Source: Pseudomonadota bacterium (lineage in GTDB: Bacteria > Pseudomonadota > Alphaproteobacteria > Caulobacterales > Caulobacteraceae). Taken from it: a stretch of DNA of 64,000 nucleotides. A program made the position numbers and the translations under genes. Where the stretch lies: contig JAKBBV010000003.1 in the NCBI GenBank assembly GCA_021808285.1, positions 1 to 64,000 of the forward strand. Direction: 5' to 3'. Of this stretch, positions 25,826 through 46,062 are shown in pieces. How positions within the stretch are numbered: the stretch's first letter is position 1; every line of letters starts with the position of its first letter. The notes below the pieces were generated by a model. That model was given only the letters and a program-made list of their open reading frames with translations, made no database searches and was not told the origin of the DNA.

Positions 25826-25916
25826 GATGCGGTCGGGGACGCCTGACCCACCTCCAGAAGGCTCCGCCGCGACGCACATCTTGCCTCGTCCCCGGACCGA
25901 GCGTAGCCACACTCTC

Positions 25917-27308: not shown

Positions 27309-28419
27309 CCGAAGGCAGCTCCTTGGCCTGGCGGCAAGCGCCGGCCTGGCCGGCATCGCGCAGGCGAAGCCGCCCGAAGACACCCTCTCCTCCTGGATCG
27401 TGATCAACGCCCTGGGCGATCTGGGCGATCCGAACCGGCCGTCGAACGGCACCGTCCCCGACCTGACGCCCCGGGTGCTGGCCGAGGCCCGAGCGTCTGG
27501 ACTGACCGCCGTGAATGTGACCCTCGGCTATGTCTCGGGGACGGGCGATCCTTTCGAGATGACGGCGCGCGATATCGCCACGACCGACGCCGTGATCGCG
27601 GCCCATTCAGACGTCGTCGCCAAGGTCCTGACCGCCGCCGATATCCGCAAGGCTAAGGCCGATGGTCGTGTCGGCCTGATCTACGGGTTCCAGAACGGCG
27701 CGATGATGGGCCACGACGCCTCGCGTGTGGATGTCTTCGCCGACCTCGGCGTGCGCGTCGTTCAGATCACCTACAATCCGGCCAACGATCTGGGGGATGG
27801 CGCGATGGCGCCTCAGAACCGTGGCCTCACCCCCTTCGGTCGGGAGGTCATCGCCCGGCTCAATGACCGCCGGGTCATGGTCGATCTCTCCCATAGCGGG
27901 GAGCGAACCTGCCTCGAAGCCGCGCAGGCCTCGCGGGCGCCGATCTCCATCAATCACACCGGCTGCCGCGCCCTGGCGGATTTGCCGCGGAACAAGACCG
28001 ACGCAGAACTTCGCCTCGTCGCCGAGCGCGGCGGGTTCGTCGGCATCTATTTCATGCCTTTCCTGAGCCTCTCGGGCCACGCTCATGCCGGGGACGTCGT
28101 CGCCCACATCGCCCATGCCGTGAAGGTCTGCGGCGAGGACCATGTGGGCATTGGAACCGACGGCGATGTCACCCAGATCGATGACCTCCAGACCTATCAG
28201 GCGGCCCTGGCCAGGGAGATCGCCCAACGCCGCGCCGCCGGGATCAGCGCTCTCGGTGAGCGGCCAGACACCTACCCCTTCGTGGTGGACCTCCGCGGCC
28301 CGGACCAGTTCCGCAAGCTCGCCGGACTGCTGAGGGCCGAGGGGTTCTCGTCCCGCCAGATCGAGAAGATCCTGGGCGGAAACTTCCTGCGTTATGCCGG
28401 GGAGGTCTGGGGAGCCTGA
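27298..28419 (+). CDS. Membrane dipeptidase (peptidase M19)
   Basis: MVDLSHSGERTCLEAAQ, PISINHTGCRAL, HVGIGTDGD; N-terminal DRRQLLGLAASAGLAG possible Tat signal; overlaps upstream gene. Confidence 0.9.
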   Translation: MPIDRRQLLGLAASAGLAGIAQAKPPEDTLSSWIVINALGDLGDPNRPSNGTVPDLTPRVLAEARASGLTAVNVTLGYVSGTGDPFEMTARDIATTDAVIAAHSDVVAKVLTAADIRKAKADGRVGLIYGFQNGAMMGHDASRVDVFADLGVRVVQITYNPANDLGDGAMAPQNRGLTPFGREVIARLNDRRVMVDLSHSGERTCLEAAQASRAPISINHTGCRALADLPRNKTDAELRLVAERGGFVGIYFMPFLSLSGHAHAGDVVAHIAHAVKVCGEDHVGIGTDGDVTQIDDLQTYQAALAREIAQRRAAGISALGERPDTYPFVVDLRGPDQFRKLAGLLRAEGFSSRQIEKILGGNFLRYAGEVWGA

Positions 28420-29268: not shown

Positions 29269-30498
29269 TCATTCCGTCGCGGGTTGCAGCCGCGGCAGAA
29301 GCAGGCTGATAAGGCCCACTCCCAGAAGATAACAGACAGAGGCATAGGCCAAGAGGGGACCATAGCCCCAGCCGCCGCCGAGCATGCGGCCCGCCACCTG
29401 CAGTATCACCAGTCCGGCCAGATTGCCGAGAAAGGCGCAGATAGAAATCGTCGTCGCCACATTCGCGCTGGGCACAATATCGGTGGTGAGGGCGAAGAGA
29501 TGTGTGGAATAGCCCTGATGTGCCGCAAGCGTCAGCGACAAGATCGCCGTCGCGACCACGGGGCCAGGCGCCAAGGTGGTCAGGGACAGCGGCAAGGCCA
29601 GGACGGCGCAGACCAGCATTCCGCTTTTGCGGGTGAAGTTCAGGCTTACCCCTCGCTCAAGCAGCATCCGGGAAGTCTGGCCCACGGCCAGGGCCCCCAT
29701 GGACGCGCTGAGGTACATCAGCGCCAAGGGACCGCCGAACTGGGCCAGACCCAGATGAAAGTCCCGGCTGAGAAGATCAGGAGCCCAGAAAAGCAGCAGC
29801 CACCAGACCTGATCGGAAAGCATCTTGGCCAAGGCGATGGCCCAGGTGCGTCTGTCGCGCAGAACCTGACGCCATGACCCGCGGTGTGCGGAGCCCGCTG
29901 CGAGGGGCTCGGCCAGGTCCAGCTTTCGATCGGGGCGCAGGGCCATCCACGCCGCGACCCAGATCAGACCCAGACCGCCCGTGACGGCAAAACTCGCGCG
30001 CCAGCCATAGGCGAGCGCCAGGACGGGAATCGCCAGCGGAGTGACGATGGCGCCCAGCCCATTGGCGGCGTTCATCAAACCCAGGGCAAGGCTGCGCTCT
30101 CCCGGGGAATAGGCGATCGCCATGGTCTTGATCGCCGTCGGCGTGCCCAGGGCTTCTGTGGCTCCGAGCGCAAATCGAGCCAGGCCAAAGGCCGCTGCGC
30201 CCTGGGCGATCGCATGGGCCGCCGCCGCCAGGCTCCATGTTCCCACGGCCAGGGGATTGGCGCGCCGCCAACCGATCGCGTCCACAAGACGCCCGGCGCC
30301 CAGCAAGGCCACAGCTGACGCCAGTTGGAACAGGGAGTTCAGATTGGCGTAGTCGACATCCGTCCAATGCAGGTCCTGCTGCAGACTCGGCTTGAGGACG
30401 GCGATGATCTGGCGATCTGCATAGTTGAGGATCCCAGCCGAGATGACCATCACCAGCAGGATGAACTTGGCGCCTCGCCACATCGAGGCTCCGGTCAC
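29269..30498 (-). CDS. MFS transporter; candidate sulfoquinovose/SQ-glycoside importer
   Basis: ILNYADRQIIAVLKPSLQQDLHWTDVDYANLNSLFQLASAV (ACS/hexuronate-like MFS); 4-bp overlap with the sulfoquinovosidase gene. Confidence 0.85.
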   Translation of the reverse strand: MTGASMWRGAKFILLVMVISAGILNYADRQIIAVLKPSLQQDLHWTDVDYANLNSLFQLASAVALLGAGRLVDAIGWRRANPLAVGTWSLAAAAHAIAQGAAAFGLARFALGATEALGTPTAIKTMAIAYSPGERSLALGLMNAANGLGAIVTPLAIPVLALAYGWRASFAVTGGLGLIWVAAWMALRPDRKLDLAEPLAAGSAHRGSWRQVLRDRRTWAIALAKMLSDQVWWLLLFWAPDLLSRDFHLGLAQFGGPLALMYLSASMGALAVGQTSRMLLERGVSLNFTRKSGMLVCAVLALPLSLTTLAPGPVVATAILSLTLAAHQGYSTHLFALTTDIVPSANVATTISICAFLGNLAGLVILQVAGRMLGGGWGYGPLLAYASVCYLLGVGLISLLLPRLQPATE

Positions 30499-32570
30499 GT
30501 GACCTCGCTCAAACCGAGGAAAAGCTTCGACCAGTCCGATCCCACCCGTAAGAAAATCGGCGGGCGACCCAAAGGGGCGTCGACCGTGACTTCAGTTCCG
30601 CCCGGATGGCTGGCGCCCGACCAGATGTGAGTCCAGCTCGCCCCGGCCGGAAGATACGCCGTCCAGTCGCGTCTTTCCGCCTCAAGCACCGGCGCGACCA
30701 GAAGGTCAGCCCCCAGCAGATAGGCGGTTTGGACATCGAAGGTGCGCGCATCGTCGGGGTGGTGCAGGAACAGGGGACGCTGCAGAGGCAGGCCTCGAGA
30801 GGACGCCTCATCCGATAGGGCTCGAAGATAGGGGCGCAGATGGCGATAGATGCGGGTCATCCGGGCGAAGTGCGCCAGGACCTGCGGATCCTCGTCGATC
30901 TGCAAATTCTGAGTGGGTCGATTGCCCTCGTGGGACCTCATCACCGCGGTGAAGGCGGCCATCTCCGCCCAGCGCATGATAAGCTCGGGCGTGCGGACAT
31001 TCCCAAACAGGCTTGTGTATCCGCCGATATCGCTGTGGTGGTAGGCGTTGCCCAGAAGCCCCGACGAAAGGGCGCCGCAGATGACGCTGGGAAGGCCGTC
31101 GTGTCGCGAAAAATCGACCGACTGATCGCCCGCCCATAAGAGGGGGCAGAAGGCTCCAACGCCGGTGAATCCGGCTCGCATGAAGAACAGGGTTTCGCCC
31201 GTCTTGCCGCGGCTGGCCACGCCCCGGGCATTGACTTCCGCCCAAAGCGTCGGCCAGGCGTTATGCGCCAGCATGGGATCCATGCCGCTCGCCAGGCGGA
31301 CATCATGGGGCAAGTATTCGCCGAAATCGGCCATCCATCCGGAGAGGCCGAAATCGATCATATTCTGGCCGATGACCGCGTCAGAGAACCATGCAGCCGC
31401 GTCCGGGTTGGTGAAGTCCACAATGCCGCAGTCGAATTCGCCGAAATCAACAACGTAGGGCGCCTCCGCATCGGGCCGAAGAGCAAGATAACCCCGCGCC
31501 TCCGCCACCGGATAAAGTTCGCCGTCGACACAGAGATAGGGGTTCACATAGCCTAGAAGGCGGACGCCCTCCTTCGCCAGGCGGGCGATCTCGCTGGGCA
31601 GGTTGGGATAGCGCGCGGGACTCCAGCTCCAGTCCCAGAACAGGCGCCGCCCGAACGTGGTCTGGCGAACTCCCACCCAATCCTCGCACCAGATGCCGGA
31701 TATGGCCGCGCCGGCCTTCTGGTAGGTCTGCAGCCGGTTCAGACTCTCAGCGCCGTCCTTGAGGCCGATGATGGCGCCGTTCAACACCCAGTCCGGGAGC
31801 GGCGGTTGGCGCCCGAATTTCAGGGACAAGGCCTCAACCAAGCTGATGAAATCCTCCTTCAGCGTGATCTCGACGCGGTCCGGGATCTCCCAGACCTCAA
31901 CCTCGTGGAAATCTGGATGTCGGAAGTCGAACGCGGAGTAGGCGGTCGTGACGACGTGCAGCGCATATCGGTCGGACGACAGGAAGGTCGGCTGCGGATA
32001 GTTGGTGCAATAATAATCGCCTCCCATACCTGACTGATCGGCCTGAAAGGTGATCAGCGAGCTCTTGTCACGCCCCACCCCCGGTTCCGATGTCCAGAGC
32101 GGGAATCGACGCCCTCGCAGGTCGAAATAGGACATCTGTTCGCCGCCGCCGAAGATGCGCTCCCCGGGCGAGGCGGCGAAACGCAGCCAAAGCCGGTTTT
32201 GACCGGGCTGCAGGCTCTCAAAAGCCAACCGCAGGTCGTCTCCGACCTCCTCCACCGTGATCGCCATGGACGGGGAGAGTTCCTGGCTCTGAGAGAGGCA
32301 TATCCTCACGGAGGCGCCCTCAACCCTGGCCTCGGCATGGGTCAGAGGCACGCGTGCGATCAGATAGTCCTCGATCTGGAAGTGCCCGCGATTCATGCGG
32401 ATGTCTGGCTCGCCCAGGCCGACGTAAGCAAACGGGCTTTGCGGCCGATGCCGGATGATCGTCCGGCCCGCGGCCGCCAGGTCGAATCCGCCATCCACGG
32501 GAACCAGTCGCATCGACGCCCTAATCCGCAAAGCAGGCCCCGGCGGGCGCCCGAACAGGTCGAATCTCAC
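30495..32570 (-). CDS. yihQ: Glycoside hydrolase family 31 sulfoquinovosidase (YihQ-like)
   Basis: Extended similarity to remembered E. coli YihQ: GIWCEDWVGVRQTTFGRRLFWDW, GGWMADFGEYLP-like GWMADFGEYLP (nucleophile), LLWAGDQSVDF (acid/base), YHHSDIGGYTSLF, RSHEGNRP; K/E/R/W at the sulfonate-recognition positions. Confidence 0.9.
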   Translation of the reverse strand: MRFDLFGRPPGPALRIRASMRLVPVDGGFDLAAAGRTIIRHRPQSPFAYVGLGEPDIRMNRGHFQIEDYLIARVPLTHAEARVEGASVRICLSQSQELSPSMAITVEEVGDDLRLAFESLQPGQNRLWLRFAASPGERIFGGGEQMSYFDLRGRRFPLWTSEPGVGRDKSSLITFQADQSGMGGDYYCTNYPQPTFLSSDRYALHVVTTAYSAFDFRHPDFHEVEVWEIPDRVEITLKEDFISLVEALSLKFGRQPPLPDWVLNGAIIGLKDGAESLNRLQTYQKAGAAISGIWCEDWVGVRQTTFGRRLFWDWSWSPARYPNLPSEIARLAKEGVRLLGYVNPYLCVDGELYPVAEARGYLALRPDAEAPYVVDFGEFDCGIVDFTNPDAAAWFSDAVIGQNMIDFGLSGWMADFGEYLPHDVRLASGMDPMLAHNAWPTLWAEVNARGVASRGKTGETLFFMRAGFTGVGAFCPLLWAGDQSVDFSRHDGLPSVICGALSSGLLGNAYHHSDIGGYTSLFGNVRTPELIMRWAEMAAFTAVMRSHEGNRPTQNLQIDEDPQVLAHFARMTRIYRHLRPYLRALSDEASSRGLPLQRPLFLHHPDDARTFDVQTAYLLGADLLVAPVLEAERRDWTAYLPAGASWTHIWSGASHPGGTEVTVDAPLGRPPIFLRVGSDWSKLFLGLSEVT

Positions 32571-32580
32571 CCAAAAGTTT

Positions 32581-32601
32581 GGGGAGGCGGGAAGCCTCCC
32601 C
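32581..32601 (-). terminator. Intercistronic hairpin between TonB-dependent receptor and sulfoquinovosidase genes
   Basis: GGGGAGGC-GGGAA-GCCTCCCC; on the minus strand followed by AAACTTTTGGG. Confidence 0.5.
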
Positions 32602-32615
32602 TGTTCGAAGTCAGA

Positions 32616-34904
32616 TCAGAAGTCCTTGTGGACGTTGAATCCCACATAACGGCTGTAGTCGCGGGGAATCCAGGTGACGAGACCTCCGAGATTTCCGTGA
32701 GCGAGAAAGGCGGAATAGTGGGTGTTGGCGAGATTCTTGACGACGAAATGCGCCGTCCATCCGCCCTGCGCGTCAATGAGGCCGATAGAGGCGTTCCAAA
32801 TGCCGTAGGCGGGCTGAACCGTGTCGGGAGTCTCAGTCAGCTGAAACTGGGTCTTGGACTGCCATTCCCAGTCGGTGTCGAGATCCAGATTGAGCCTTGA
32901 AGTCATCGGCGCCTGATAGTCAGCGTCCAGATGGCTCTTCCAGCGCGGCGCGAAAGGCATCGGCTGGCCGTTGATATTGCAGCTTATGGCCGCGTGTGCG
33001 GGGCAGGGGAAGTTGACCACATAAGCGTCGTCATAGGCGAGATCGCCGCTAAGGGTGAAAGCGTCCCAGATCTTGGCGATGACGTTGGCCTCAGCCCCGC
33101 GACTGGTCACCTCGCCGGCATTGATGAGGTTGGTGACCTGAGCCCCGTTCACGAGTTGCAGGAAATTCGCCTGATAGTTCTGGAAATTGGTGATGAAGCC
33201 CGAGAGGTTGGCCTGGAGGTGGTCGTCAAGAAGACGGGATTTCAGTCCAATCTCATAGGAGGTCGAGGTCTCCGGATTGAGCGGCGGCGTATTGGCCGCG
33301 CCCATATTGAAGAACACGTTGTAGGCTGGGCCCATATAGCCGCGCGAAACGGTGCCGTAGACGTTGACGTCCGAATTCACGTCGTACTGCAGGCCTGTGC
33401 GCCCTGCCCACCCCGTCTTGCTGACCGAGCCGTTGGTCGTGAAATTGCCAGCGATGCCAGGGGAGCCGGGGTTGGAGGTCGGGCTGTCGACCCGATTCTC
33501 ATAAAAACTCAGGTCGTCGTGGATCGCGCGAGCGCCCAGTATGAGCCGCAGCTTCTTGGTGAAGTTGACGTCGCCTTCGCCAAAAATCGCATAATTTCGA
33601 TCATTGGTGCCGTAGTCGGCGAGGCCGGACGAATTGAACGGGCCGGAGGCCAGAATCTGGTTGTCGGCTCTTTGATAGGTCTCATGATCGATCTCGTTCA
33701 TGAAGTAGAGACCCACGACGTAGTCGACGAAATGCCCCTTGGGCGACTCGAGCCGAACTTCCTGCGATATCTGATGAAAACGGAGGTGGCCGGTATCTCC
33801 CGCCTGAACGACACCCGGTTCCGGCGCTGATACGCCGTCAAAATCCTGGAACTGATCATTGTTCCAGAACCGGTAGGCCGTGATCGACGTGACCGTGAAA
33901 CCTTGCGGCAGCTTCCAGTCGAAAGTGCCTGACACCCCGCTATTGACGTCGGTGACCCGGCTGGTGAGGTTGGTGCTCACCGTCGTATTATTTGGGCCGG
34001 GCGTCACGCCGCCGGCGGCGATGGCGGCGCCGAGGGCCGCGTTCGTCGACACCGTGCCCAGCGGATAGGACTGCTGGCTATCACTGAGCCACACGCCGTT
34101 TGGCGTGGTGTCATGCTCGTGGGTGTAGTCCGCGCCCAGAGTGAACGTCAGATTGTCGGTGAGATCCGCCACGATCTTGGTGCGAGCGCCCCAATGCTCA
34201 TAGCCGTTCACATATTTTCCGTCATAGTTGTCGAAGACGTTTCCCTTGAAGCCGCCGTCGAACACAGACAACAGGGCCTGGACGTTTTTCGCCAGGGAGC
34301 CGGACACCCCTCCATCGATCCGATATTCCCCGCCGCTGTAATAGCCGCCATCAAAATAGCCCGTCGTGGCGGCCGTGGGATTGCGGGTGACGATATTGAT
34401 GACGCCGGCCGTTGCGTTCTTGCCGAACAGCGTGCCCTGGGGGCCCTCCAGCACCTCGATGTGATCGACGTCGGAGAAATCAACCGTGGCCTGGCCCGCT
34501 CTGGCATAGACGACGCCATCGATGACGGTGGAGACCGAAGGTTCGACGCCCGGCGAGGTCGAGATCGTGCCGATCCCGCGCACGAAGATTGTCCGGTCCT
34601 TGTTCGAGGCGCTGGTGCGGAAGTCCACGCTCGGCACAGTCGCGGAAATATCCTGGATGTCATTCAGGTTCTTCGCCGCCGCCGCGGCGCCCTGAACCAC
34701 ATCGACAGCCACCGGAACCTTTTCGAGAGATTCCGCCCGACGCCGGGCGGTGACGATGACCTCGCCGACCGTGGCCGTATTGGCCTCGGCTGAGGCGGAT
34801 CTGGGACTCTGATCAGAGCCGGACGTGGTCGCGGCGAGAGAGGCGCCGGCCGTCAGGGCGAGCGCGGAAGCCGTCACGAACAGCGGAATAGACAAACGAC
34901 GCAT
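32616..34904 (-). CDS. TonB-dependent receptor (candidate SQ/sulfoquinovosyl-glycerol outer-membrane transporter)
   Basis: VGEVIVTARRRAESLEKVPVAV TonB-box/plug, FVRGIGT, VEVLEGPQGTLFGKNATAGVINIVTRNP, C-terminal YVGFNVHKDF. Confidence 0.93.
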   Translation of the reverse strand: MRRLSIPLFVTASALALTAGASLAATTSGSDQSPRSASAEANTATVGEVIVTARRRAESLEKVPVAVDVVQGAAAAAKNLNDIQDISATVPSVDFRTSASNKDRTIFVRGIGTISTSPGVEPSVSTVIDGVVYARAGQATVDFSDVDHIEVLEGPQGTLFGKNATAGVINIVTRNPTAATTGYFDGGYYSGGEYRIDGGVSGSLAKNVQALLSVFDGGFKGNVFDNYDGKYVNGYEHWGARTKIVADLTDNLTFTLGADYTHEHDTTPNGVWLSDSQQSYPLGTVSTNAALGAAIAAGGVTPGPNNTTVSTNLTSRVTDVNSGVSGTFDWKLPQGFTVTSITAYRFWNNDQFQDFDGVSAPEPGVVQAGDTGHLRFHQISQEVRLESPKGHFVDYVVGLYFMNEIDHETYQRADNQILASGPFNSSGLADYGTNDRNYAIFGEGDVNFTKKLRLILGARAIHDDLSFYENRVDSPTSNPGSPGIAGNFTTNGSVSKTGWAGRTGLQYDVNSDVNVYGTVSRGYMGPAYNVFFNMGAANTPPLNPETSTSYEIGLKSRLLDDHLQANLSGFITNFQNYQANFLQLVNGAQVTNLINAGEVTSRGAEANVIAKIWDAFTLSGDLAYDDAYVVNFPCPAHAAISCNINGQPMPFAPRWKSHLDADYQAPMTSRLNLDLDTDWEWQSKTQFQLTETPDTVQPAYGIWNASIGLIDAQGGWTAHFVVKNLANTHYSAFLAHGNLGGLVTWIPRDYSRYVGFNVHKDF

Positions 34905-35007
34905 GGGGCCTCCCCTGGAACACTCACGACGGCGGAGCGTCCGCCGACGGCGCCGCTAAATGCGGTCATTAATTTACAGGATAAGGCCCCAGCCCTCAGA
35001 AAACAAG

Positions 35008-35026
35008 ACTTATATAAGACATAAGA
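35008..35026 (-). promoter_or_regulatory. Candidate SQ-regulon operator, site 1 (TCTTATGTCTTATATAAGT on minus strand)
   Basis: Matches sites at 36752 and 42860; ~104 bp upstream of TonB receptor start. Confidence 0.8.
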
Positions 35027-35027
35027 G

Positions 35028-35924
35028 CTATAAGAGAGAGCGAGGCCATAGCCCAAGGCCCGCCGACTGAACGGCATTCGGGACGAGGCGGACCAGTCCG
35101 GGCTGGCCTGGCAGATTGACAGCGTCGATGGGATGGGAGACGGGCTCCCAGCAAAACAGATCTCGCCCCCTAGGGCTGAAGAGGACCGCTCCGCGAAGAT
35201 CGGGAGAGGCCGTCAGACCCAAACCCCACCCCGCACCCGGCCATATGATGTCCGCCTCGGCTGCGATGTCTGCGAACGCGTGATCGAGCCCCTCCGGCGG
35301 CGTGCGGCCTGAGGCGAAGTCAAGGTCCGGGGGAACAGGGAGGCGACGCCGGGGAAGACTGTCGGCAGGCCCCTCCCACATCTCCTTTGCCTCGAAACGC
35401 AGACGCGCGGTTCGGCGTTGGGGAAAGAAGGGGTGAAACCCCAGTCCGAGAGGCTGAGCTTGACTCGCCAAATTGACGGCCGAGATGGTCATTTCTAGCC
35501 CAAGCTCAGAGAGCGCGAAATCGAGCCTCACCTTCAGCGGCCAAGGCCAGTCGTCATCGCCCTGGTGGTGGTGAGCAAGGCTCAGGCGCTCGCGCGTGGC
35601 GGAGATGATGTCGAATCTACGCTCCCAGGCGAAGCCATGGAGGGAATGAGGCGCCGCGAGGCGGTGCGGCCGAAGCCGAACTCGCCGGCCCTCCCAGACA
35701 AACGCGGCCTCAGCGATCCGATTGGAATAGGGCGCCAACCCATAGCAGCCGCCCTGGCCCGCCCCGCCCGGTCCTGAGCCGTCGAAAGCCAACGGGGCGA
35801 GAAAGTCGAAGACGACGCCGTCGCGCTCGACCCAGAACCGCGCCAGTCGCCCTCCAAGTCCGGGGCTCACCTCGGCGCGAAGGTTCCCGGCGGCAAGCCG
35901 GACAGTCTCAGGAGATGCCGCCAT
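35028..35924 (-). CDS. Aldose 1-epimerase family protein (candidate sulfoquinovose mutarotase)
   Basis: LGGRLARFW, LAPYSNRIAEAAF, HSLHGFAWERRFD, GLGFHPFFP; overlaps SDR gene. Confidence 0.85.
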   Translation of the reverse strand: MAASPETVRLAAGNLRAEVSPGLGGRLARFWVERDGVVFDFLAPLAFDGSGPGGAGQGGCYGLAPYSNRIAEAAFVWEGRRVRLRPHRLAAPHSLHGFAWERRFDIISATRERLSLAHHHQGDDDWPWPLKVRLDFALSELGLEMTISAVNLASQAQPLGLGFHPFFPQRRTARLRFEAKEMWEGPADSLPRRRLPVPPDLDFASGRTPPEGLDHAFADIAAEADIIWPGAGWGLGLTASPDLRGAVLFSPRGRDLFCWEPVSHPIDAVNLPGQPGLVRLVPNAVQSAGLGLWPRSLL

Positions 35925-36675: not shown

Positions 36676-36751
36676 GGCGCGGGCTTCCCTGATCTGGAAG
36701 GTCTCACCCATGGGCAGGTTGCATCCGGGTTTGCCATCGAACCCCCTATGG

Positions 36752-36770
36752 TCTTATGTCTGATATAAGA
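36752..36770 (+). promoter_or_regulatory. Candidate SQ-regulon operator, site 2 (TCTTATGTCTGATATAAGA)
   Basis: 18/19 match to site 3; in the divergent SDR/dehydratase promoter. Confidence 0.82.
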
Positions 36771-36795: not shown

Positions 36796-38532
36796 ATGGA
36801 TGGCGACAGGCCGGATCGGCCCCGGCGCGCAAGACGAAGCGACCGATGGTTCGCCGCCGACGGGATGCGCGCTTTCGCGCATCGCTCACGCATGCAACAG
36901 GTGGGTTGGCGCCGGGAGGACTTCGTCGACAAACCGGTCATCGGGATTCTGAATACCTGGAGCGACCTTTCCACCTGCCATTCGCACCTGCGCGATCGCG
37001 CCGCATCGGTGAAAGCGGCCGTCCAACGCGCGGGCGGATTCGCCGCAGAGCTTCCTGCGCTGTCCCTGGGCGAGGTGCTGGTCAAGCCGACGACCATGCT
37101 CTACCGCAATCTCCTGTCCATGGAGGCAGAGGAGCTGATTCGCTCCCATCCCCTCGATGGCGTGGTGCTTATGGGCGGCTGCGACAAGACCACCCCTGGC
37201 CTGATCATGGGCGCCATCAGCGCCGGCCTGCCCTTCATCTACCTTCCCGCGGGGCCGACGCTCAACGGGTCCTGGCGCGGCGAGACCATCGGCACCGGCA
37301 CGCACACGAGACGCTATTTCGATGCCCTTCGCGCTGGCGAGATCAGTCAGGAGGAATGGAACGACCTTGAGACGCGGATGGTGCGATCGGTCGGGACCTG
37401 CAACACCATGGGCACGGCCTCGACCATGAGCCTCCTCGCCGAGGCCTTGGGATTGTCCCTGCCGGGCGCCGCGGCGACCCCCGCCGCCGACTCCGCCCAT
37501 GTGCGTCTGGCCGAGGCCACCGGCGCGCGCATCGTCGACATGGTCGAGGAGGACCTCCGCCCCAGCGACTTGCTGACCCGCGCCTCATTCGAGAACGCCA
37601 TCATTGCGCTGCACGCTATTGGCGGCTCCACCAATGCGGTGATCCATTTGACCGCCATGGCCGGACGGGCGGGCGTCGCCCTGGAGCTTGCGGATTTCGA
37701 GCGGCATTCCGGGCGCGTGCCGCTCATCGCAAACTTGATGCCGACCGGGCGATTCCTGATGGAGGACCTGTTCCTCGCCGGAGGATCGGACGGGCTGCTG
37801 CAACGTCTCGCCCCGTTGCTCGACCTGACCGCACAGACCGTCACTGGAGTGACCCTCGGCGAAGCGCTGGCCCCGGCCCGAATCCATAATCCTGACATCA
37901 TTCGTCCCCTGACCGATCCGGTCGCCCAGGCGCCGGCCCTGGCCGTGCTTCACGGCTCCCTGGCCCCTGACGGCTGCGTCATCAAACCCTCCGCGGCGCA
38001 CCCGGACTTACTGGTCCATCGCGGCCGGGCCGTGGTCTTCGAGACCTATGCCGATATGGCCGCCCGGATCGACGATCCCGATCTCGACGTGGACGAGACC
38101 AGTATCCTGGTGCTCAAGGGCGCGGGACCGCTCGGGGGTCCTGGAATGCCCGAATGGGGCGGCCTGCCGATTCCGCGTAAGCTGCTCGCCCGCGGCGTCA
38201 GGGACATGGTGCGCATCTCCGACGCGCGGATGAGCGGGACGCATTTCGGCGCCTGCATCCTGCATGTGGCCCCCGAGTCAGCCCTCGGCGGCCCGCTCGC
38301 CCTGGTGCGGAACGGCGACGAGATTGAGCTTGATACGCCGGCGCGCCGCCTCGACCTGCTCGTGGACGCGGCGGAATTGGAACGCCGCCGCCAGCAATGG
38401 ACGCCGCCGCCTCCGAAATTCCAGCGCGGCTATGGCGTGATGTTCAGCGCTCATATCCTGAGCGCACCGCGCGGCTGCGACTTCGATTTCCTGGAAGGCG
38501 CCGCGCCGACCGCCGAGCCCGACATCTACTGA
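36796..38532 (+). CDS. IlvD/Edd family dehydratase (candidate 6-deoxy-6-sulfogluconate dehydratase)
   Basis: GILNTWSDLSTCHSHLRDRAASVK, VLMGGCDKTTPGLIMG, GTCNTMGTASTMSLLAEALG, GGSTNAVIHLTAMAGRAG. Confidence 0.88.
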   Translation: MDGDRPDRPRRARRSDRWFAADGMRAFAHRSRMQQVGWRREDFVDKPVIGILNTWSDLSTCHSHLRDRAASVKAAVQRAGGFAAELPALSLGEVLVKPTTMLYRNLLSMEAEELIRSHPLDGVVLMGGCDKTTPGLIMGAISAGLPFIYLPAGPTLNGSWRGETIGTGTHTRRYFDALRAGEISQEEWNDLETRMVRSVGTCNTMGTASTMSLLAEALGLSLPGAAATPAADSAHVRLAEATGARIVDMVEEDLRPSDLLTRASFENAIIALHAIGGSTNAVIHLTAMAGRAGVALELADFERHSGRVPLIANLMPTGRFLMEDLFLAGGSDGLLQRLAPLLDLTAQTVTGVTLGEALAPARIHNPDIIRPLTDPVAQAPALAVLHGSLAPDGCVIKPSAAHPDLLVHRGRAVVFETYADMAARIDDPDLDVDETSILVLKGAGPLGGPGMPEWGGLPIPRKLLARGVRDMVRISDARMSGTHFGACILHVAPESALGGPLALVRNGDEIELDTPARRLDLLVDAAELERRRQQWTPPPPKFQRGYGVMFSAHILSAPRGCDFDFLEGAAPTAEPDIY

Positions 38533-38568: not shown

Positions 38569-39366
38569 ATGGCCATGACCCCGCCCAATCGCTTCAAGTC
38601 CGCCCTCGCCGAGGGTCGGCGCCTGATCGGCGGCTGGTCGATGTCCGGTTCGGCCACCATTGCAGAGGCCCTGGGATGGAGCGGCGCCGACTTCGTGGTG
38701 CTCGATCTGGAGCATTCGCCGACCTCGACGCACGCGGTCCTGCCTCTGCTCCAGGCCCTTGATGCGAGCGGGGCGATTCCCGTGGTGAGGATGGCCAGTC
38801 ACGATCGGATCGCCCTCAAGCACGCCCTCGATCTGGGCGCCAACACGCTTTACTTTCCCTTCGTCGAGACTGCGGACGCGGCTCGCGGGATCGTCAGCGC
38901 CGCGCTCTACCCGCCACGCGGGACCCGAGGCTTCTCGCGCATGAACCGGGCCAGCCGCTACCTGGCGTTCGAGGACTATGGCCCCTCGGCGCATGACGAC
39001 CTCGTCCTCATCCCGCAGCTTGAGAGCCCGCAAGCCATCGCGCGCGCCGGTGAGATCGCCTCTGTGGAGGGTGTCGGCGCGGTGTTCGTGGGGCCCGGGG
39101 ATTTGGCCGTGTCGCTGGGTCTGATGGGTCAGATCGGCCACCCCAGGGTGCGCGAGCTCATGGCTGAGGCGGCGGCTGCGGCCCGTGCGGTCGGCAAGGC
39201 TTGCGGCACGGTGATGGGGGACCCGGAGAGCGCAGCCTGGGCCTTCAGCGTCGGCTACCAGTTCGTCTCCGTCTCCAACGACATGGCCGCTGTCGCCTCG
39301 CTCAGCCGAGCCCACCAGTCCCGCACCCGCGAACTCATGGCGAACTTGCCTGCGAGGGTCAGCTGA
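38569..39366 (+). CDS. HpcH/HpaI family class II aldolase (candidate 2-keto-3,6-dideoxy-6-sulfogluconate aldolase)
   Basis: GADFVVLDLEHSPTS, LDLGANTLYFPFVETADAAR, VFVGPGDLAVSLGLMGQ. Confidence 0.88.
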   Translation: MAMTPPNRFKSALAEGRRLIGGWSMSGSATIAEALGWSGADFVVLDLEHSPTSTHAVLPLLQALDASGAIPVVRMASHDRIALKHALDLGANTLYFPFVETADAARGIVSAALYPPRGTRGFSRMNRASRYLAFEDYGPSAHDDLVLIPQLESPQAIARAGEIASVEGVGAVFVGPGDLAVSLGLMGQIGHPRVRELMAEAAAAARAVGKACGTVMGDPESAAWAFSVGYQFVSVSNDMAAVASLSRAHQSRTRELMANLPARVS

Positions 39367-40285
39367 GATGCCGCAGGACGTTCTGGGCGGTCACCTCTGA
39401 AACCCGAAGGTTCGATTCGTCGCTGACCCCCGCGATATGGGGCGTAAGGATGAGGTTTGGCGTATCGGCGAATCGAGCGCCGGCTTCGACCGTCAGCGGC
39501 TCGACGTCGAACACATCCAGCGCCGCGCCGCCAAGATGTCCCTCGCGCAGAGCCTGGGCCAGGGCGTGCTCGTCCACCACGCCGCCCCTCGCCGCATTGA
39601 TGAGGATGGCGCCTCGCTTCATGCGCGCGAGAGCAGGGGCATCGAACATGCCCCGGGTTTGGGGCGTCAGCGGCACATGCAAGCTGACCACGTCGCAGGC
39701 CGCCAGGAGCTCATCGAGCGTCGCGATGCGTGCGGCGCCCGCCCAGGCGGCATCGCCGGCCGCAAGGAGGGAATCAAAGGCGCAGATCTCAAACCCGAGC
39801 CCCGCCGCCAGCCTCGCGGTCAGGCGCGCGATGGCCCCATAGCCCACCAGACCCAAACGCTTGCCCGCGCTCTCGCGGCCGATCAGCTTCATCCGCGGCC
39901 AGGCGCCCTGTTGCACGGCGTGGGAGGCAAGGTAAGCGCCGCGAAGGAGTACGAGCGCCATGGCGATCACATATTCGGCCACCGCCAGGTCATTGGCCCC
40001 CGTCGCCGGGCAGACAGCGACGCCCCGGGCTCGGCATGCCTCCAGATCGATATTGTCGAGCCCGACGCCCAATCGCCCGACCACCTTGAGCCGGGGAGCG
40101 GACGCCAGCAACGCCGCGTCGACCCGCGTGCGGTTCCTCACCAGGAGCGCCTCCGCATCTGACAGAGCGGCGAGAAGCTCGCCAGGTCGATCCACCAAGG
40201 TGTCGTCGAAGAGCAGGTCGCGGCCCGCGAAGGCAGACGCCACCACCTCCGCATCCATGAACTCGCTGATGACGATCTGGGCCAT
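39359..40285 (-). CDS. slcC: D-isomer-specific 2-hydroxyacid dehydrogenase (candidate (S)-sulfolactate dehydrogenase)
   Basis: GRLGVGLDNIDLEACRARG, LGLVGYGAIARLTARL, INAARGGVVDEHALAQAL, DVFDVEPL; adjacent to comC-like and suyAB genes. Confidence 0.82.
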   Translation of the reverse strand: MAQIVISEFMDAEVVASAFAGRDLLFDDTLVDRPGELLAALSDAEALLVRNRTRVDAALLASAPRLKVVGRLGVGLDNIDLEACRARGVAVCPATGANDLAVAEYVIAMALVLLRGAYLASHAVQQGAWPRMKLIGRESAGKRLGLVGYGAIARLTARLAAGLGFEICAFDSLLAAGDAAWAGAARIATLDELLAACDVVSLHVPLTPQTRGMFDAPALARMKRGAILINAARGGVVDEHALAQALREGHLGGAALDVFDVEPLTVEAGARFADTPNLILTPHIAGVSDESNLRVSEVTAQNVLRHLS

Positions 40286-40317: not shown

Positions 40318-41316
40318 TCAGGCCGTCGCCAGGGTGACGAGTTCGGCGTGCAGCGACTCTGGGAGGGTCAGCCCCTGATCCTCGGCTTGACGGCGGGCGG
40401 CGAGACGCCTCTGGCCGGGAAGCCGCACGCCTTCCTCCGCCGTCGCGGCCGCTGCCAGAGCCCCAACCCTTTGGAGCACCCGCTCGCCGCCGAACGGCTC
40501 CGGATCAATCGCCAGGAGAACTTGACCCACCGCGGGCGGCCCCCCCACGTCGTCGAGGAAGGAGCTCGCCTCCCAACCGAAAGCGCCGCCGGCCAGTGCG
40601 CCCGCCATGAGCTCGACCATGAGAGCCAGGGCCGCCCCCTTGGCCCCGCCCATGGCGACCATAGCTCCCTGCAGCGCGGCCTTGGGGTCGGTGGTCGGTT
40701 GCCCTGACGCATCCACGGCCCAGTCGGCCGGAATGTCCCGTCCTTCCCGGGCGGCGGTCACAATCTTACCCCGCGCCGCCTGGGACAACGCCATATCGAT
40801 CACCAGAGGCGCCGCTCCGGGAATCGGGCTGGCGAACGCGACCGGATTGGTGCCCAGCATGGGCCGGCGACCGCCATGGAAGGCCATGGCCTTGGGCGAA
40901 TTGGCGAAGGCGAAAGCGAGGAGGCCCCGCTCGGCCAGGCGCTCCACGGGACCACCCGCCTGACCGAAGTGATGCGAGCGAACGATCGCGGCGATCGCCA
41001 CGCCATTGTCGTGGGCGGCGGCGACCAGAGCGGGCAGGGCCAGATCGATGGCCGGATAGGCGAAGCCATGGGCGGCGTCGACCCTCAGGGCTCCCGGACG
41101 GAGGCGCGACAGGTGAGGCGTGGCGAAGCCGTCCACCTTGCCGACGCGCGCTTGGGCCGCATAGGAGGCGACGCGCGACAGACCGTGGCCCGACTGCCCG
41201 TCCGCCTCGGCCCGGACCAGCGCCCGGGCGGTGGGGCCAGCCTGTTCCGGAGACACGCTGTTGGCCTCCAGCGCGGCCTGTACGAGGGACTGGGCGTCCG
41301 CAAGACTCAACTGCAT
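40318..41316 (-). CDS. comC: Ldh2/malate-lactate dehydrogenase family (candidate (R)-sulfolactate dehydrogenase)
   Basis: ALVRAEADGQSGHGLSRVASYAAQ, RSHHFGQAGGPVERLAERG, FANSPKAMAFHGGRRPMLGTNPVAFASP; context. Confidence 0.82.
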   Translation of the reverse strand: MQLSLADAQSLVQAALEANSVSPEQAGPTARALVRAEADGQSGHGLSRVASYAAQARVGKVDGFATPHLSRLRPGALRVDAAHGFAYPAIDLALPALVAAAHDNGVAIAAIVRSHHFGQAGGPVERLAERGLLAFAFANSPKAMAFHGGRRPMLGTNPVAFASPIPGAAPLVIDMALSQAARGKIVTAAREGRDIPADWAVDASGQPTTDPKAALQGAMVAMGGAKGAALALMVELMAGALAGGAFGWEASSFLDDVGGPPAVGQVLLAIDPEPFGGERVLQRVGALAAAATAEEGVRLPGQRRLAARRQAEDQGLTLPESLHAELVTLATA

Positions 41317-41329: not shown

Positions 41330-42499
41330 TCAGGCCGAGCGATACAGCTTGGTCATGACGAATTCCCGGTGGCCGAGCGCCTCAGCGGCCGTGAGGCGAC
41401 CGTTGGCCGTGCGACGGATCATCTCGATCAGGGCGTCGCCCGCCTGATCAATGGTCATCTCGCGCCGGACGATCCCGGAGACGTCCAGGTCGATGTGCTC
41501 CTCCATGACCCGTACGGTTCGCGGGTTTCCGGAGACCTTGATCACCGGCATGATCGGGTTGCCGATCACGTTTCCTTGGCCGGTCGGGAAGATGTGGACG
41601 ACATAGCCGGCCGCCGCCTGAAGTGTGCAGCATTCCGCCGCGGCGGACGAGGTGTCCATGAAATACAGGCCCGGTCCGCGTGCAGGAGCTTCAGCCGGCT
41701 CCAGCACGTCGATGAACTTCACCGACTTGCCGATCTTCTCGAGATTGCCGAGCGCCTTTTCCTCGATAGTCGTCAGACCTCCGGCGATGTTGCCCTTGGT
41801 CGGCTGGCTGTCGGAAAGGTCGGAGGTCTTGTGCGCTTCGATGACGTCGTCCTGATAGGCCCGCCAGGTCTTCATGAACTTTTCGGCGACCTGCGGCGAC
41901 GCCGCCCTGGCGGCGGCGAGATGCTCGGCCCCGGTCAGCTCGGATGTCTCGCCAAAGCAGCCATAGAGGCCGGCGGGAATGAGCTTGTCATACATGTTTC
42001 CGACCGTGGGGCAGGAGGCCAGACCCGTGGTCGTGTCGCTCTCACCGCATTTTGCGGCCACCCAGAGGTCGGTAAGGTCGACGGGCTCGCGGACCAGTTC
42101 TGAAGCCCAATGGACGAAGGTCTTCGCCTGGCGCGACGCCGCCGCGACGGTGGCGATATCGCCATTGCCCTCAATCCAGAACCCGGCCACGGGCTTGCCC
42201 GTGGCGGCGATGCCATCGACGACCTTCTGTGTCCACGCCGGTTCAATGCCGATGACCACGCAGGCCGCAACGTTCGGGTTGGCGCCTGTGCCGATCATGG
42301 TCCGGAAATGCAGCTCAAGATCTTCGCCGAACTGAAGCCGCCCATAGGCGTGCGGCAGGGCGATCGTGCCTTGGATATGGGCCGCTACAGCTTCGCAGGC
42401 CGCATTGGAGATGTCGTCGAGCGGCAGGATGACGACATGGTTGCGGACTCCTATCCGGCCGTTTTCGCGCCGATAGGCCCAGACGGTCTGCGTGCTCAT
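41330..42499 (-). CDS. suyB: (2R)-sulfolactate sulfo-lyase large subunit SuyB (UxaA-like)
   Basis: [107 protein letters not shown]. Confidence 0.9.
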
Positions 42500-42512: not shown

Positions 42513-42803
42513 TCACCAGCGCTTGGTCTTGAGATTTTGGGTGTGGACGTGGTCGCCGACGGCGACCTCGCTCACGATACGACCGATGACTTCGCCATAC
42601 TTAATCGCGTCGTCGCCGCTCTTGAGTCCGGTCAAGGCGACCTTGTGGCCGATCGGAACATCGTGATTGCAGACCACAGTGAACTCGGAATTGTCGTCCA
42701 GGCACACGCCGAACAGCGATTGGCCGGCCTTCACTCCCTCGACCACGACGACCGCGACGTTGTCGCCCTTGTGGTGTACCAGGACGTGGGGGACCTGAGA
42801 CAT
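42513..42803 (-). CDS. suyA: (2R)-sulfolactate sulfo-lyase small subunit SuyA (SAF domain)
   Basis: [32 protein letters not shown]...[48 protein letters not shown]. Confidence 0.9.
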
Positions 42804-42859: not shown

Positions 42860-42878
42860 TCTTATGTCTTATATAAGA
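42860..42878 (+). promoter_or_regulatory. Candidate SQ-regulon operator, site 3 (TCTTATGTCTTATATAAGA)
   Basis: Contains perfect 12-bp palindrome TCTTATATAAGA; in divergent suyA/gntR intergenic. Confidence 0.85.
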
Positions 42879-42955
42879 GTCAAGAAAAGTCCTCGGGCCG
42901 GAAAACTTGGGGGATGATCGGCGATCCCAATAGGGCAAGGACCTTCGGAGGCGGC

Positions 42956-43681
42956 ATGGAGTCGATCGAGACGCCAGGATATCGACCCCTCTACAAGCAG
43001 GTCTACGACGTCATCGTCCGGCGCATTTCGCAGGGCGAGTGGCGCCCCGGACAATCCCTCCCGAGCGAGACCGCCCTGGCCAGGGATCTCTCCGTATCGC
43101 AGGGCACGGTCCGCAAAGTGCTTGATGCGCTCACAGCGGAGAAGCTGCTGGAGCGGCGTCAGGGCAAGGGCACCTATATCGCCGAGAACACCCAGGAGCG
43201 GGCTCTGTTCCGCTTCTTTCGCCTGTCGCGTCCTGGCGGCGAGCGCCTGATCCCTGACCGCGCCTGGGAGAAGGTCCGCCTGAGGCCCAGCCGGGCGCTT
43301 GAGCGACTGAAGCTTGATCTTGGCCGCACGGACAAGGTCATCGAAATTCGTCGCGTGCGGGCGATACTCGGCCGCCCCTGCATTCGCGAGACGATCATCG
43401 TGCCGGCCGCCCTGGCTCCGGGCCTTGAGAGTCTCGCTCCGCTGCCGAACACGCTCTATTCGCTTTATCAATCGCGCTACGGCATCAACATCACCCAGGC
43501 TCACGAGGAGCTCCGTGCCGGGCTCGCCGACGACGACGACGCCGCCGAGATCGACGTGCTGCCCGGACAACCCTTGCTGCTGATCGACCGCGTCGCGGTC
43601 TCGCTCGAAGACCGCAAAGTGGAGTGGCGCCAGAGCCGCTGCCAAAGCGCAGACATCGTCTACGCCGTAAATCTCACCTGA
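42956..43681 (+). CDS. GntR family regulator, UTRA domain (candidate SQ-locus regulator)
   Basis: PLYKQVYDVIVRRISQGEWRPGQSLPSETALARDLSVSQGTVRKVLDALTAEKLLERRQGKGTYI; UTRA C-terminus; start at 42956 behind GGAGG-like RBS. Confidence 0.92.
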   Translation: MESIETPGYRPLYKQVYDVIVRRISQGEWRPGQSLPSETALARDLSVSQGTVRKVLDALTAEKLLERRQGKGTYIAENTQERALFRFFRLSRPGGERLIPDRAWEKVRLRPSRALERLKLDLGRTDKVIEIRRVRAILGRPCIRETIIVPAALAPGLESLAPLPNTLYSLYQSRYGINITQAHEELRAGLADDDDAAEIDVLPGQPLLLIDRVAVSLEDRKVEWRQSRCQSADIVYAVNLT

Positions 43682-43723: not shown

Positions 43724-45172
43724 ATGTCCCAGACCTATCCCATTTTCGAGTCCTGCCTGATTGGAGGCGAATGGGTGGGCGCAGGCGCCGGCTCCGTCAT
43801 CCCCGTGCGAAACCCCTGGGACGGGCGCCAGATCGGGACCGTGCCTGACGCCGGACGCGCCGAGACGCGCGCGGCGATAGCGGCGGCGGACGCGGCCCTG
43901 GGACCCTGGAAGGCTATGACCGCGGCGGAGCGGTCACAGCTGATGCTGCGGCTGGCGGATCTCATGCTGGCGGAGAAGGAGTCGCTCGGACGCCTGCTCA
44001 CCCTGGAACAGGGCAAGCCGCTCAGCGAAGCGGTGGGAGAAGTCGCCTTCGGCGCCGCCTACGTCCGGTGGTTCGCGGAGGAGGCCAAGCGGGTTTATGG
44101 CGATATCATTCCCTCGCCCTGGCGAGGTCGTCGCATCCTGGTGACCCGGGAGCCGGTCGGGGTGGTCGGCGCGATCACGCCCTGGAATTTCCCAAACTCG
44201 ATGATCGCCCGCAAACTCGGCGCGGCCTTGGCCGCTGGATGCACCATGGTCATCAAGCCCGCCAGTCAGACCCCCTTCTCCGCCCTGGCCGTGGGCGATC
44301 TGGCGCTCAAGGCCGGGTTGCCCGCCGGCGTCGTCAATATCGTCACCGGCAAGGCCGCCGAAATCGCGGCGGAGATGTGCGAGAACCCGCGCCTGCGAAA
44401 GATCTCGTTTACAGGCTCCACAGAGGTCGGCCGGCGCTTGGCGGCCCAGGCGTCGGCTCATCTCAAGCGCACCTCCATGGAGCTTGGCGGCAACGCCCCC
44501 TTCGTGGTTTTCGATGACGCCGATATCGAGGCGGCCGTGAACGGCGCCATGGTCTCGAAGTTCCGCAACAGCGGCCAGACCTGCGTCTGCACCAACCGCT
44601 TTCTCGTCCAGTCCGGCATTCACGACGCCTTCGTCGCGCGTTTCTCCAAGGCTATCGGAGAGCTGAAGCTCGGCAATGGACTCGAGCCGGGCGTGGCCCA
44701 GGGGCCGCTGATCGACGAGAGCGCTGTGCTCAAGGTCGAGGCTCATGTGGCGGACGCTTTGGGCAAGGGCGCGATCCTGGTGCGCGGCGGCCGCCGCTCA
44801 AGCCTGGGCGGAAGCCTTTACGAGCCTACCCTCGTCACCGGCGCCAACTCCCAGATGCTTGTTGCCGGAGATGAGACGTTCGGTCCCTTGGCCGCCGTTT
44901 TCCGCTTTGAGACAGAGGCAGAGGCGATCGCCCTCGCCAATGCGACGGAATATGGCTTGGCCGCCTATCTCTACACACGCGATCTGGCCCGCGCCTTTCG
45001 CGTCAGTGAGGCCCTCGAATATGGGCTTGTCGGGGTCAATGAGGGACTGATCACCACCGAGGCGGCGCCATTTGGCGGCTACAAGGACTCCGGCTTTGGA
45101 AAGGAGGGCTCGAAGTACGGCGTGGAGGACTATGTGAACATGAAATACACCTGTCTCGGCGGTCTTGGCTGA
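43724..45172 (+). CDS. NAD(P)-dependent aldehyde dehydrogenase, GabD-like (candidate 3-sulfolactaldehyde dehydrogenase)
   Basis: TPWNFPNSMIARKLGAALAAGCTMVIKPASQTPFSA, FTGSTEVGRRL, MELGGNAPFVVFDDAD, NSGQTCVCTNRF. Confidence 0.92.
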   Translation: MSQTYPIFESCLIGGEWVGAGAGSVIPVRNPWDGRQIGTVPDAGRAETRAAIAAADAALGPWKAMTAAERSQLMLRLADLMLAEKESLGRLLTLEQGKPLSEAVGEVAFGAAYVRWFAEEAKRVYGDIIPSPWRGRRILVTREPVGVVGAITPWNFPNSMIARKLGAALAAGCTMVIKPASQTPFSALAVGDLALKAGLPAGVVNIVTGKAAEIAAEMCENPRLRKISFTGSTEVGRRLAAQASAHLKRTSMELGGNAPFVVFDDADIEAAVNGAMVSKFRNSGQTCVCTNRFLVQSGIHDAFVARFSKAIGELKLGNGLEPGVAQGPLIDESAVLKVEAHVADALGKGAILVRGGRRSSLGGSLYEPTLVTGANSQMLVAGDETFGPLAAVFRFETEAEAIALANATEYGLAAYLYTRDLARAFRVSEALEYGLVGVNEGLITTEAAPFGGYKDSGFGKEGSKYGVEDYVNMKYTCLGGLG

Positions 45173-45186: not shown

Positions 45187-46062
45187 GTGTCTGGCCCCGT
45201 CGAACTCGTCCTGGACTGCAAGGCCCTATTGGGTGAGTGTCCGCGCTGGCATAGCGTGGAATCGGCGCTCTATTTCGTCGACATCGCGCGGTGTCATCTT
45301 CATCGCCTCGATCCCACGACGGGTCGCCTGCGAACCCGTACTCTGGACGAGCCCGTGGGCAGCTTCGCCTTCCGCAAGGACGGCGGATTCGTCCTGGCCA
45401 TGCGTGACGGCTTCGCCCTGCTGGACTCTCTAGATGGCCCGGTTCGCCACCTGGGGCCCCGACTGCCGCCAGGCAACGGCGCGCGCTTCAATGACGGCCG
45501 GACCGATCCTTCCGGTCGTTTCTACGCCGGCACCATCGATCCCACGCGCGAGGCCTCCACGGCGGGCCTGTTCCGGCTGGATCCCGACGGGGCGGTGACC
45601 TGTTTATTCTCAGGCGCCCTGACCTCCAATGGCGCGGCCTTCTCCCCGGATGGAAAAATCTTCGCCTGGTCCGATACGCCAAGGCATGTGCTCTACGCCT
45701 TCGACGCGAATGCGGACACGGGCGCTCTTGAGAACCGCAGGGTCTGGCGGCGATGGCCACAGGGCGGCGGGCGGCCAGATGGGGGCTCCTTCGATCAGAC
45801 CGGGCGCTACTGGACGGCCCTCTTCGACGGCGGCCGCGTTGCCTGTCTCACGGCCTCCGGCGATATCGTTGAGGAGGTGAGGGTTCCCTGTCCGCGCCCC
45901 ACTATGGTCGCCTTTGGCGGGGCCGACGGACGCACCGCCTTCGTCACCACGGCCCGAGAGGGCCTGACCGAGGCTCAGTTGGCGCAATGGCCCCAATCGG
46001 GCGGGGTCTTTGCCTTCCGCGTCGACACGCCAGGGGTGAGCGAGCACCCCTTCGCCGGCTGA
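45187..46062 (+). CDS. SMP-30/gluconolactonase family protein (candidate 6-deoxy-6-sulfogluconolactonase)
   Basis: LLGECPRWHSVESALYFVDI, GNGARFNDGRTDPSGRFYAGTI, RPDGGSFDQTGRYWTALFDGGRV; GTG start. Confidence 0.9.
   Translation: MSGPVELVLDCKALLGECPRWHSVESALYFVDIARCHLHRLDPTTGRLRTRTLDEPVGSFAFRKDGGFVLAMRDGFALLDSLDGPVRHLGPRLPPGNGARFNDGRTDPSGRFYAGTIDPTREASTAGLFRLDPDGAVTCLFSGALTSNGAAFSPDGKIFAWSDTPRHVLYAFDANADTGALENRRVWRRWPQGGGRPDGGSFDQTGRYWTALFDGGRVACLTASGDIVEEVRVPCPRPTMVAFGGADGRTAFVTTAREGLTEAQLAQWPQSGGVFAFRVDTPGVSEHPFAG

What the first reader, a model, noticed from the sequence alone, without database searches (positions are those of the whole stretch)
30495..32570. GH31 enzyme carries a KERW-type sulfosugar recognition signature
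The protein shows GAIIGLKDGAE, GIWCEDWVGVR, TTFGRRLFWDW, GWMADFGEYLP and WAGDQSVDF. By alignment from memory with E. coli YihQ, the positions of the QQRW sulfonate-binding set read K, E, R, W, the variant reported for Agrobacterium-type sulfoquinovosidases. The nucleophile and acid/base Asp motifs are intact. This distinguishes it from generic alpha-glucosidases.
Basis: partly seen in the sequence, partly recalled or inferred. Interest (0 to 1): 0.75.

Follow-up and report, generated by a model that had tools for sequence, protein, structure and literature searches.

The report
One-regulon sulfoquinovose mineralisation with KERW sulfoquinovosidase
The gene is, as predicted, an enzyme that cuts the plant sulfosugar sulfoquinovose from its glycosides, and it sits in one co-regulated gene cluster that appears to let a single bacterium break the sugar down all the way to pyruvate and sulfite, a job usually described as shared between two species.

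Summary
The GH31 protein (30495-32570, minus strand) aligns without gaps at the key sites to solved sulfoquinovosidases: K271/E296/R309/W312 = AtSQase K245/E270/R283/W286 = EcYihQ Q262/Q288/R301/W304, with nucleophile (D415), acid/base (D482) and Tyr518 kept. All 80 nearest homologues read KERW; the organism's own ordinary GH31 does not. Alone this is a new member of a known subtype. The larger result is its context. Bases 29269-46062 encode a complete sulfo-Entner-Doudoroff pathway interleaved with a sulfolactate-desulfonating module (SlcC-like, ComC-like, SuyB, SuyA), a GntR/UTRA regulator, a TonB receptor and an MFS carrier. A near-identical operator lies at three promoters (SQase operon, sulfo-ED genes, SuyAB/GntR) and nowhere else in the 2.9-Mb genome at two mismatches or fewer. 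The same tandem recurs, with other gene orders, in at least seven other genomes, and its SuyB falls in one clade. Published sulfo-ED organisms excrete sulfolactate or DHPS; a tandem with SuyAB is described for sulfofucose but, in the literature I could search, not for sulfoquinovose. No function was assayed. Verdict: new variant of a known kind.

The parts
29269..30498 (-). MFS carrier, candidate inner-membrane importer of SQ or SQ-glycerol
   Evidence: PF07690, nearest NCBIfam model a D-galactonate transporter, below cut-off; TBDT-SQase-MFS order conserved in L001, L002, L005, L014, L094, L096 and L099
30495..32570 (-). GH31 sulfoquinovosidase, KERW subtype (K271, E296, R309, W312; D415 nucleophile, D482 acid/base, Y518)
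32616..34904 (-). TonB-dependent receptor, candidate outer-membrane entry for SQ glycosides
   Evidence: PF07715+PF00593; conserved next to the SQase
35008..35026 (+). operator copy 1 (ACTTATATAAGACATAAGA), upstream of TBDT-SQase-MFS
35028..35924 (-). aldose-1-epimerase family, candidate SQ mutarotase
   Evidence: PF01263
35908..36711 (-). SDR, SQ 1-dehydrogenase
   Evidence: best PDB hit P. putida SQ 1-dehydrogenase 9gwu, E 1.2e-71; all 10 checked catalytic, cofactor and substrate residues conserved, including sulfonate-site Arg152/Arg154
36752..36770 (-). operator copy 2 (TCTTATATCAGACATAAGA) between the divergent SQDH and SG dehydratase genes
36796..38532 (+). IlvD/Edd-family dehydratase, sulfogluconate dehydratase candidate
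   Evidence: PF00920, the family named for SG dehydratase in PMC9594981
38569..39366 (+). HpcH/HpaI aldolase, KDSG aldolase candidate
   Evidence: PF03328, the family named for KDSG aldolase
39359..40285 (-). D-2-hydroxyacid dehydrogenase, SlcC-like (S)-sulfolactate dehydrogenase candidate
   Evidence: PF02826; 68% identical to the gene of the same place in the M. oryzae SuyAB cluster
40318..41316 (-). Ldh_2 family, ComC-like (R)-sulfolactate dehydrogenase candidate
   Evidence: PF02615; best NCBIfam model is L-sulfolactate dehydrogenase NF040650, below its cut-off
41330..42499 (-). SuyB, large subunit of (R)-sulfolactate sulfo-lyase
   Evidence: 66% identical to the UxaA-family protein beside hpsN/hpsO in C. 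pinatubonensis; other UxaA-type relatives at about 40% or less
42513..42803 (-). SuyA, small SAF-like subunit, 96 aa from ATG at 42803 after an AGGTG ribosome site
   Evidence: conserved before suyB in all tandem loci
42860..42878 (-). operator copy 3 (TCTTATATAAGACATAAGA) between the divergent suyA and gntR genes
42914..43681 (+). GntR/UTRA (HutC-type) regulator of the cluster
   Evidence: PF00392+PF07702; operator occurs with its homologues
43724..45172 (+). aldehyde dehydrogenase, sulfolactaldehyde dehydrogenase candidate
   Evidence: PF00171; hits RlGabD 8c54 at E 1.1e-173 with Arg171/Arg289/Cys295 equivalents, also shared by succinate-semialdehyde dehydrogenases
45187..46062 (+). SMP-30/gluconolactonase family, sulfogluconolactone lactonase candidate
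   Evidence: PF08450, the family named for SGL lactonase

Best explanation
The protein is a KERW-type GH31 sulfoquinovosidase at the head of a single regulon that takes sulfoquinovose (SQ) glycosides to pyruvate and sulfite in one cell. Proposed route: a TonB receptor and an MFS carrier bring in SQ-glycerol; the SQase frees alpha-SQ by a retaining double displacement (D415, D482), with K271/E296/R309/W312 gripping the sulfonate. Then mutarotase, SQ dehydrogenase, lactonase, dehydratase and aldolase give pyruvate and sulfolactaldehyde, which is oxidised to (S)-sulfolactate. Instead of being excreted, this is inverted through sulfopyruvate by the SlcC-like and ComC-like dehydrogenases and cut by SuyAB to pyruvate and sulfite. 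A GntR/UTRA regulator probably controls all modules through one shared operator. Shown by computation: homology, conservation of catalytic and sulfonate-site residues, linkage, operator sharing. Inferred: substrates, reaction directions, repressor logic, sulfite fate.
For: KERW and catalytic residues align to solved SQases; best fold matches are all SQases. SQDH keeps 10 of 10 checked PpSQDH residues. All five sulfo-ED families, SuyA/B, ComC-like and SlcC-like genes lie within 17 kb. Three operators with at most 1 mismatch in the genome, all in this cluster, including the suyAB promoter. In loci with the GntR homologue, 15 operator hits in 101 kb against 2 in 1.48 Mb without it. Tandem repeated in L005, L008, L009, L014, G001, G008 and G236, mostly with other gene orders. 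All 8 tandem SuyB in one 9-member clade, SH-aLRT 99. Two TauE-type sulfite exporter family genes exist in the genome.
Against: No activity data. The SLADH match does not separate sulfolactaldehyde from succinate semialdehyde. The ComC-like gene scores below the NCBIfam cut-off. In G001 and G008 the cluster is split over contigs, and in G236 the two halves are about 14 kb apart. One relative, G025, carries the SuyB clade without this SQase. TauE genes are not in the cluster, and no SorA-type sulfite dehydrogenase was found.
Confidence: 0.82

Rival explanations
1. Ordinary sulfo-ED cluster that excretes sulfolactate; the SuyAB module beside it serves sulfolactate, cysteate or DHPS taken up from outside, and adjacency is incidental.
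For: Published sulfo-ED organisms excrete sulfolactate or DHPS; SuyAB modules exist alone in other genomes, e.g. the M. oryzae plasmid and G025.
Against: suyAB shares the operator with the SQase and sulfo-ED promoters; the association recurs in distinct gene orders; unlike the M. oryzae cluster, no dedicated sulfolactate carrier or TauE lies in the module.
Confidence: 0.12
2. The cluster degrades sulfofucose rather than sulfoquinovose, as in Paracoccus wurundjeri.
For: That tandem has the same module pairing.
Against: Its diagnostic dehydratase families PF13378/PF02746 are not found; the dehydratase here is PF00920, the SQ type. An SQase is present, and characterised SQases do not cut PNP-alpha-sulfofucoside. 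SQDH matches the SQ enzyme.
Confidence: 0.02
3. The GH31 enzyme is a generic alpha-glucosidase whose resemblance to sulfoquinovosidases is only by descent.
For: GH31 holds many glucosidases and xylosidases.
Against: Sulfonate-site residues kept in 81 of 81; own-genome GH31 differs; nearest by fold and sequence are all SQases.
Confidence: 0.02

Closest known systems
Agrobacterium tumefaciens GH31 sulfoquinovosidase (PDB 5ohs, 5ohy, 7ofx)
   Same: About 61-62% identical, same KERW set, same catalytic Asp pair, same fold
   Different: In A. tumefaciens the SQase serves an oxidative sulfo-ASMO/SMO pathway with an SQGro ABC transporter (PMC9594981); here it serves sulfo-ED plus SuyAB with a TonB receptor and an MFS carrier
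E. coli YihQ (PDB 5aed, 5oht)
   Same: Same family, catalytic residues, and Arg/Trp/Tyr of the sulfonate site
   Different: QQRW instead of KERW; sulfo-EMP context
[quoted passage not shown]
   Same: All enzyme families from SQ to sulfolactate
   Different: Those are described as exporting sulfolactate; this cluster continues with SlcC-like/ComC-like/SuyAB
Tandem sulfofucolytic-sulfolactate sulfolyase pathway, Paracoccus wurundjeri (PMC12421959)
   Same: ED-type sulfosugar cleavage coupled to SlcC/ComC-SuyAB in one bacterium
   Different: Other sugar, other dehydratase family, ABC transport, no glycosidase found and no classical SLA dehydrogenase; here an SQ-type dehydratase, an SQase and a GabD/SlaB-type dehydrogenase are present

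Membership tests
GH31 sulfoquinovosidase, KERW subtype | GH31 fold and catalytic Asp nucleophile and acid/base | tested here: met
   D415, D482 aligned to EcD405/EcD472; TM 0.90-0.96 to solved SQases
GH31 sulfoquinovosidase, KERW subtype | K/E/R/W at the four sulfonate-site positions and the conserved Tyr | tested here: met
   K271, E296, R309, W312, Y518. The roles of these residues are from my own knowledge of the YihQ/AtSQase papers; the AtSQase paper is not held in the library
GH31 sulfoquinovosidase, KERW subtype | hydrolyses SQ glycosides, negligible activity on glucosides | not testable with these tools
   needs an enzyme assay
Sulfo-ED pathway | SQ dehydrogenase (SDR), SGL lactonase PF08450, SG dehydratase PF00920, KDSG aldolase PF03328, SLA dehydrogenase | tested here: met
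   all families in one cluster; SQDH residues 10/10
Sulfo-ED pathway | sulfolactate (or DHPS) excreted as end product | not testable with these tools
   presence of SuyAB in the regulon predicts otherwise
SlcC/ComC-SuyAB sulfolactate desulfonation | split SuyA+SuyB next to D-2-hydroxyacid and Ldh_2 dehydrogenases | tested here: met
   41330-42803 with 39359-41316; compare the M. oryzae and C. pinatubonensis loci
SlcC/ComC-SuyAB sulfolactate desulfonation | ComC-like protein above the curated L-sulfolactate dehydrogenase cut-off | tested here: inconclusive
   best model NF040650, 185.6 bits against a cut-off of 500
Tandem sulfofucose pathway | SGal dehydratase PF13378/PF02746 | tested here: not met
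   dehydratase is PF00920; criterion from PMC12421959
Sulfo-SMO/ASMO pathway | SQ flavin monooxygenase in the cluster | tested here: not met
   no such family among the cluster proteins scanned

The most novel reading that the evidence does not exclude
A dedicated tandem sulfo-ED plus sulfolactate-lyase regulon mineralises sulfoquinovose within one cell. It is shared by at least two alphaproteobacterial families and by MAGs labelled Gammaproteobacteria, carries its own SuyB lineage, and is governed by a GntR/UTRA regulator acting on a TCTTATATAAGAYATAAGA operator; I found none of this described for sulfoquinovose.
Probability: 0.72. Interest if true: 0.6.

Novelty: new variant of a known kind. 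Interest (0 to 1): 0.52.

Why it matters
[quoted passage not shown] The 2025 sulfofucose paper calls coexistence of both tiers in one bacterium unusual and names only a Klebsiella case with unresolved mechanism (PMC12421959). This cluster, with a shared operator that marks its boundaries, gives a direct genetic hypothesis and named genomes in which to test one-cell mineralisation.

Tried and rejected
Generic GH31 glucosidase: rejected by residues, fold and own-genome contrast. Sulfofucose pathway: rejected by the dehydratase family. Altronate/galactarate dehydratase for SuyAB: rejected because the nearest plasmid relatives, which include sulfonate clusters, are 61-78% identical while the next group is at about 40% or less, and because the subunits are split and lie beside two sulfolactate-type dehydrogenases. 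SorA-type sulfite dehydrogenase (PF00174): searched, not found. A TauE exporter in the regulon: two exist but lie on other contigs with no operator. Direct distance measurement in the model: coordinates are not exposed, so position is argued from alignment and fold search. SLADH specificity from Arg171/Arg289: these are shared by succinate-semialdehyde dehydrogenases, so not discriminating. The primary AtSQase structure paper is not held. A look at the next 20 kb of the Opitutaceae contig showed no clear sulfoglycolysis genes.

Full report
Observation. It belongs to GH31 (three Pfam domains) and scores 906 bits against the PRK10426/YihQ equivalog model, cut-off 553.

Sulfonate-site residues. 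In the HMMER alignment to PDB chains the query aligns without local gaps at these sites. Query 271/296/309/312 fall on 262/288/301/304 of E. coli YihQ (Q, Q, R, W) and on 245/270/283/286 of the Agrobacterium enzyme (K, E, R, W); the chain numbers are counted from the alignment lines. The nucleophile D415 and acid/base D482 match EcD405 and EcD472; D482 sits exactly where 5ohs carries Asn instead of Asp. Y518 matches EcY508. The roles of these residues in sulfonate binding are from my own knowledge of the YihQ and AtSQase papers; the AtSQase paper is not in the library. In 80 homologues from 80 genome loci plus the window, all seven positions are identical; the same genome's other strong GH31 (L081) reads ASRF at the four positions. 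An AlphaFold2 model (mean pLDDT 84.6, pTM 0.88; some loops are of low confidence) has only sulfoquinovosidases as its 23 best PDB matches, TM 0.90-0.96; the next GH31 enzymes drop to about 0.7 or less.

The surroundings. From 29269 to 46062 the window encodes MFS, SQase, TonB receptor, aldose-1-epimerase, SDR, dehydratase (PF00920), HpcH/HpaI aldolase, D-2-hydroxyacid dehydrogenase, Ldh_2 dehydrogenase, SuyB, SuyA, GntR/UTRA, aldehyde dehydrogenase and SMP-30 lactonase. These are the families named for the sulfo-ED pathway in PMC9594981 plus the SlcC/ComC-SuyAB module. The SDR has the P. putida SQ 1-dehydrogenase as best solved relative and keeps all ten checked residues that PMC12133307 names for cofactor, catalysis and SQ binding, including the sulfonate-site arginines 152 and 154. 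SuyB is 66% identical to the protein beside hpsN and hpsO in C. pinatubonensis and 78% to one in a M. oryzae plasmid cluster with TauE, both dehydrogenases and a molybdopterin oxidoreductase; the next group of relatives is at about 40% or less. SuyA should start at ATG 42803, 96 aa.

A shared operator. The 19-mer TCTTATATAAGACATAAGA occurs at 42860-42878 (suyA and gntR, divergent), with one mismatch at 35008-35026 (TonB receptor-SQase-MFS) and at 36752-36770 (SQDH and dehydratase, divergent); shuffles give none. In the whole 2.9-Mb genome the 17-base core has no other site at two mismatches or fewer; at three there is an overlapping copy in the suyA-gntR gap and one site elsewhere. Across the 80 loci, the six that carry the GntR homologue have 15 hits at two mismatches or fewer in 101 kb; the other 74 have 2 in 1.48 Mb. 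In L005, L008, L009 and L014 the sites sit in the suyA/dehydratase gap and before the SQase or TonB receptor. This ties SQ release, sulfo-ED and sulfolactate cleavage into one regulon; that the GntR protein binds the site is inferred.

Distribution. The tandem is found in L005, L008, L009 and L014 (MAGs), in G001 and G008 of the same genus (split by contig ends), and in G236 of another family of the class, where both parts lie on one 3.4-Mb contig about 14 kb apart. In a survey of 395 genomes of the class, SuyB occurs in 36, this SQase in 4, and both only in G000 and G236. The non-tandem SuyB examined, apart from G025, are 66-78% identical to the window's, tandem ones 87-94%; a tree puts all eight tandem SuyB in one nine-member clade (SH-aLRT 99), the ninth being G025, which lacks this SQase. 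A common origin with later transfer is the simplest reading, since four of the carriers are labelled Gammaproteobacteria or only Proteobacteria; MAG binning errors could blur this.

Comparison with the literature. Reviews describe sulfo-ED as ending in exported sulfolactate, and Vibrio sulfo-ED ends in DHPS. PMC12421959 describes a tandem for sulfofucose and calls coexistence of both phases in one bacterium unusual, citing one mechanistically unresolved Klebsiella case. PMC13372026 screened genomes for SuyAB/SlcC/ComC but discusses the carriers as secondary degraders. I found no description of a sulfoquinovose sulfo-ED/SuyAB tandem in the open-licence library; subscription papers could not be searched.

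What is not shown. No activity, no transport substrate, no repressor effector. SLADH identity rests on context. Sulfite must leave or be used: no SorA-type dehydrogenase was found; two TauE-type proteins and a sulfite/nitrite-reductase-type protein exist elsewhere in the genome.

Noticed in passing
L074:299-21118 (Opitutaceae MAG contig): Two SQases, a TonB receptor and an esterase lie near a block of ROK, phosphoglycerate-kinase-like, GAPDH-like, LarA-type racemase-like, SuyB and SuyA genes. This suggests, unverified, ATP-yielding oxidation of sulfolactaldehyde and sulfolactate inversion by a LarA homologue instead of SlcC/ComC.
   Followed up: partly
L001, L002, L099; also sphingomonad loci such as L044, L045, L050, L056: A TonB receptor-SQase-MFS set occurs without nearby sulfo-ED genes, so this looks like a portable uptake-and-hydrolysis module joined to different downstream pathways.
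   Followed up: partly
L098 (G025): Lone SuyA-SuyB-ComC-like genes of the tandem SuyB clade beside a LysR regulator and a P450, in a genome without this SQase.
   Followed up: partly
L046 (Elstera litoralis): SQase next to SQDH, dehydratase and aldolase but no lactonase match on the stretch held, agreeing with the lactonase-free sulfo-ED that PMC13372026 reports for Elstera.
   Followed up: no
window 25827-28419: An amidohydrolase followed by an M19 dipeptidase, both plus strand, near the cluster edge; no link to sulfosugars seen.
   Followed up: no
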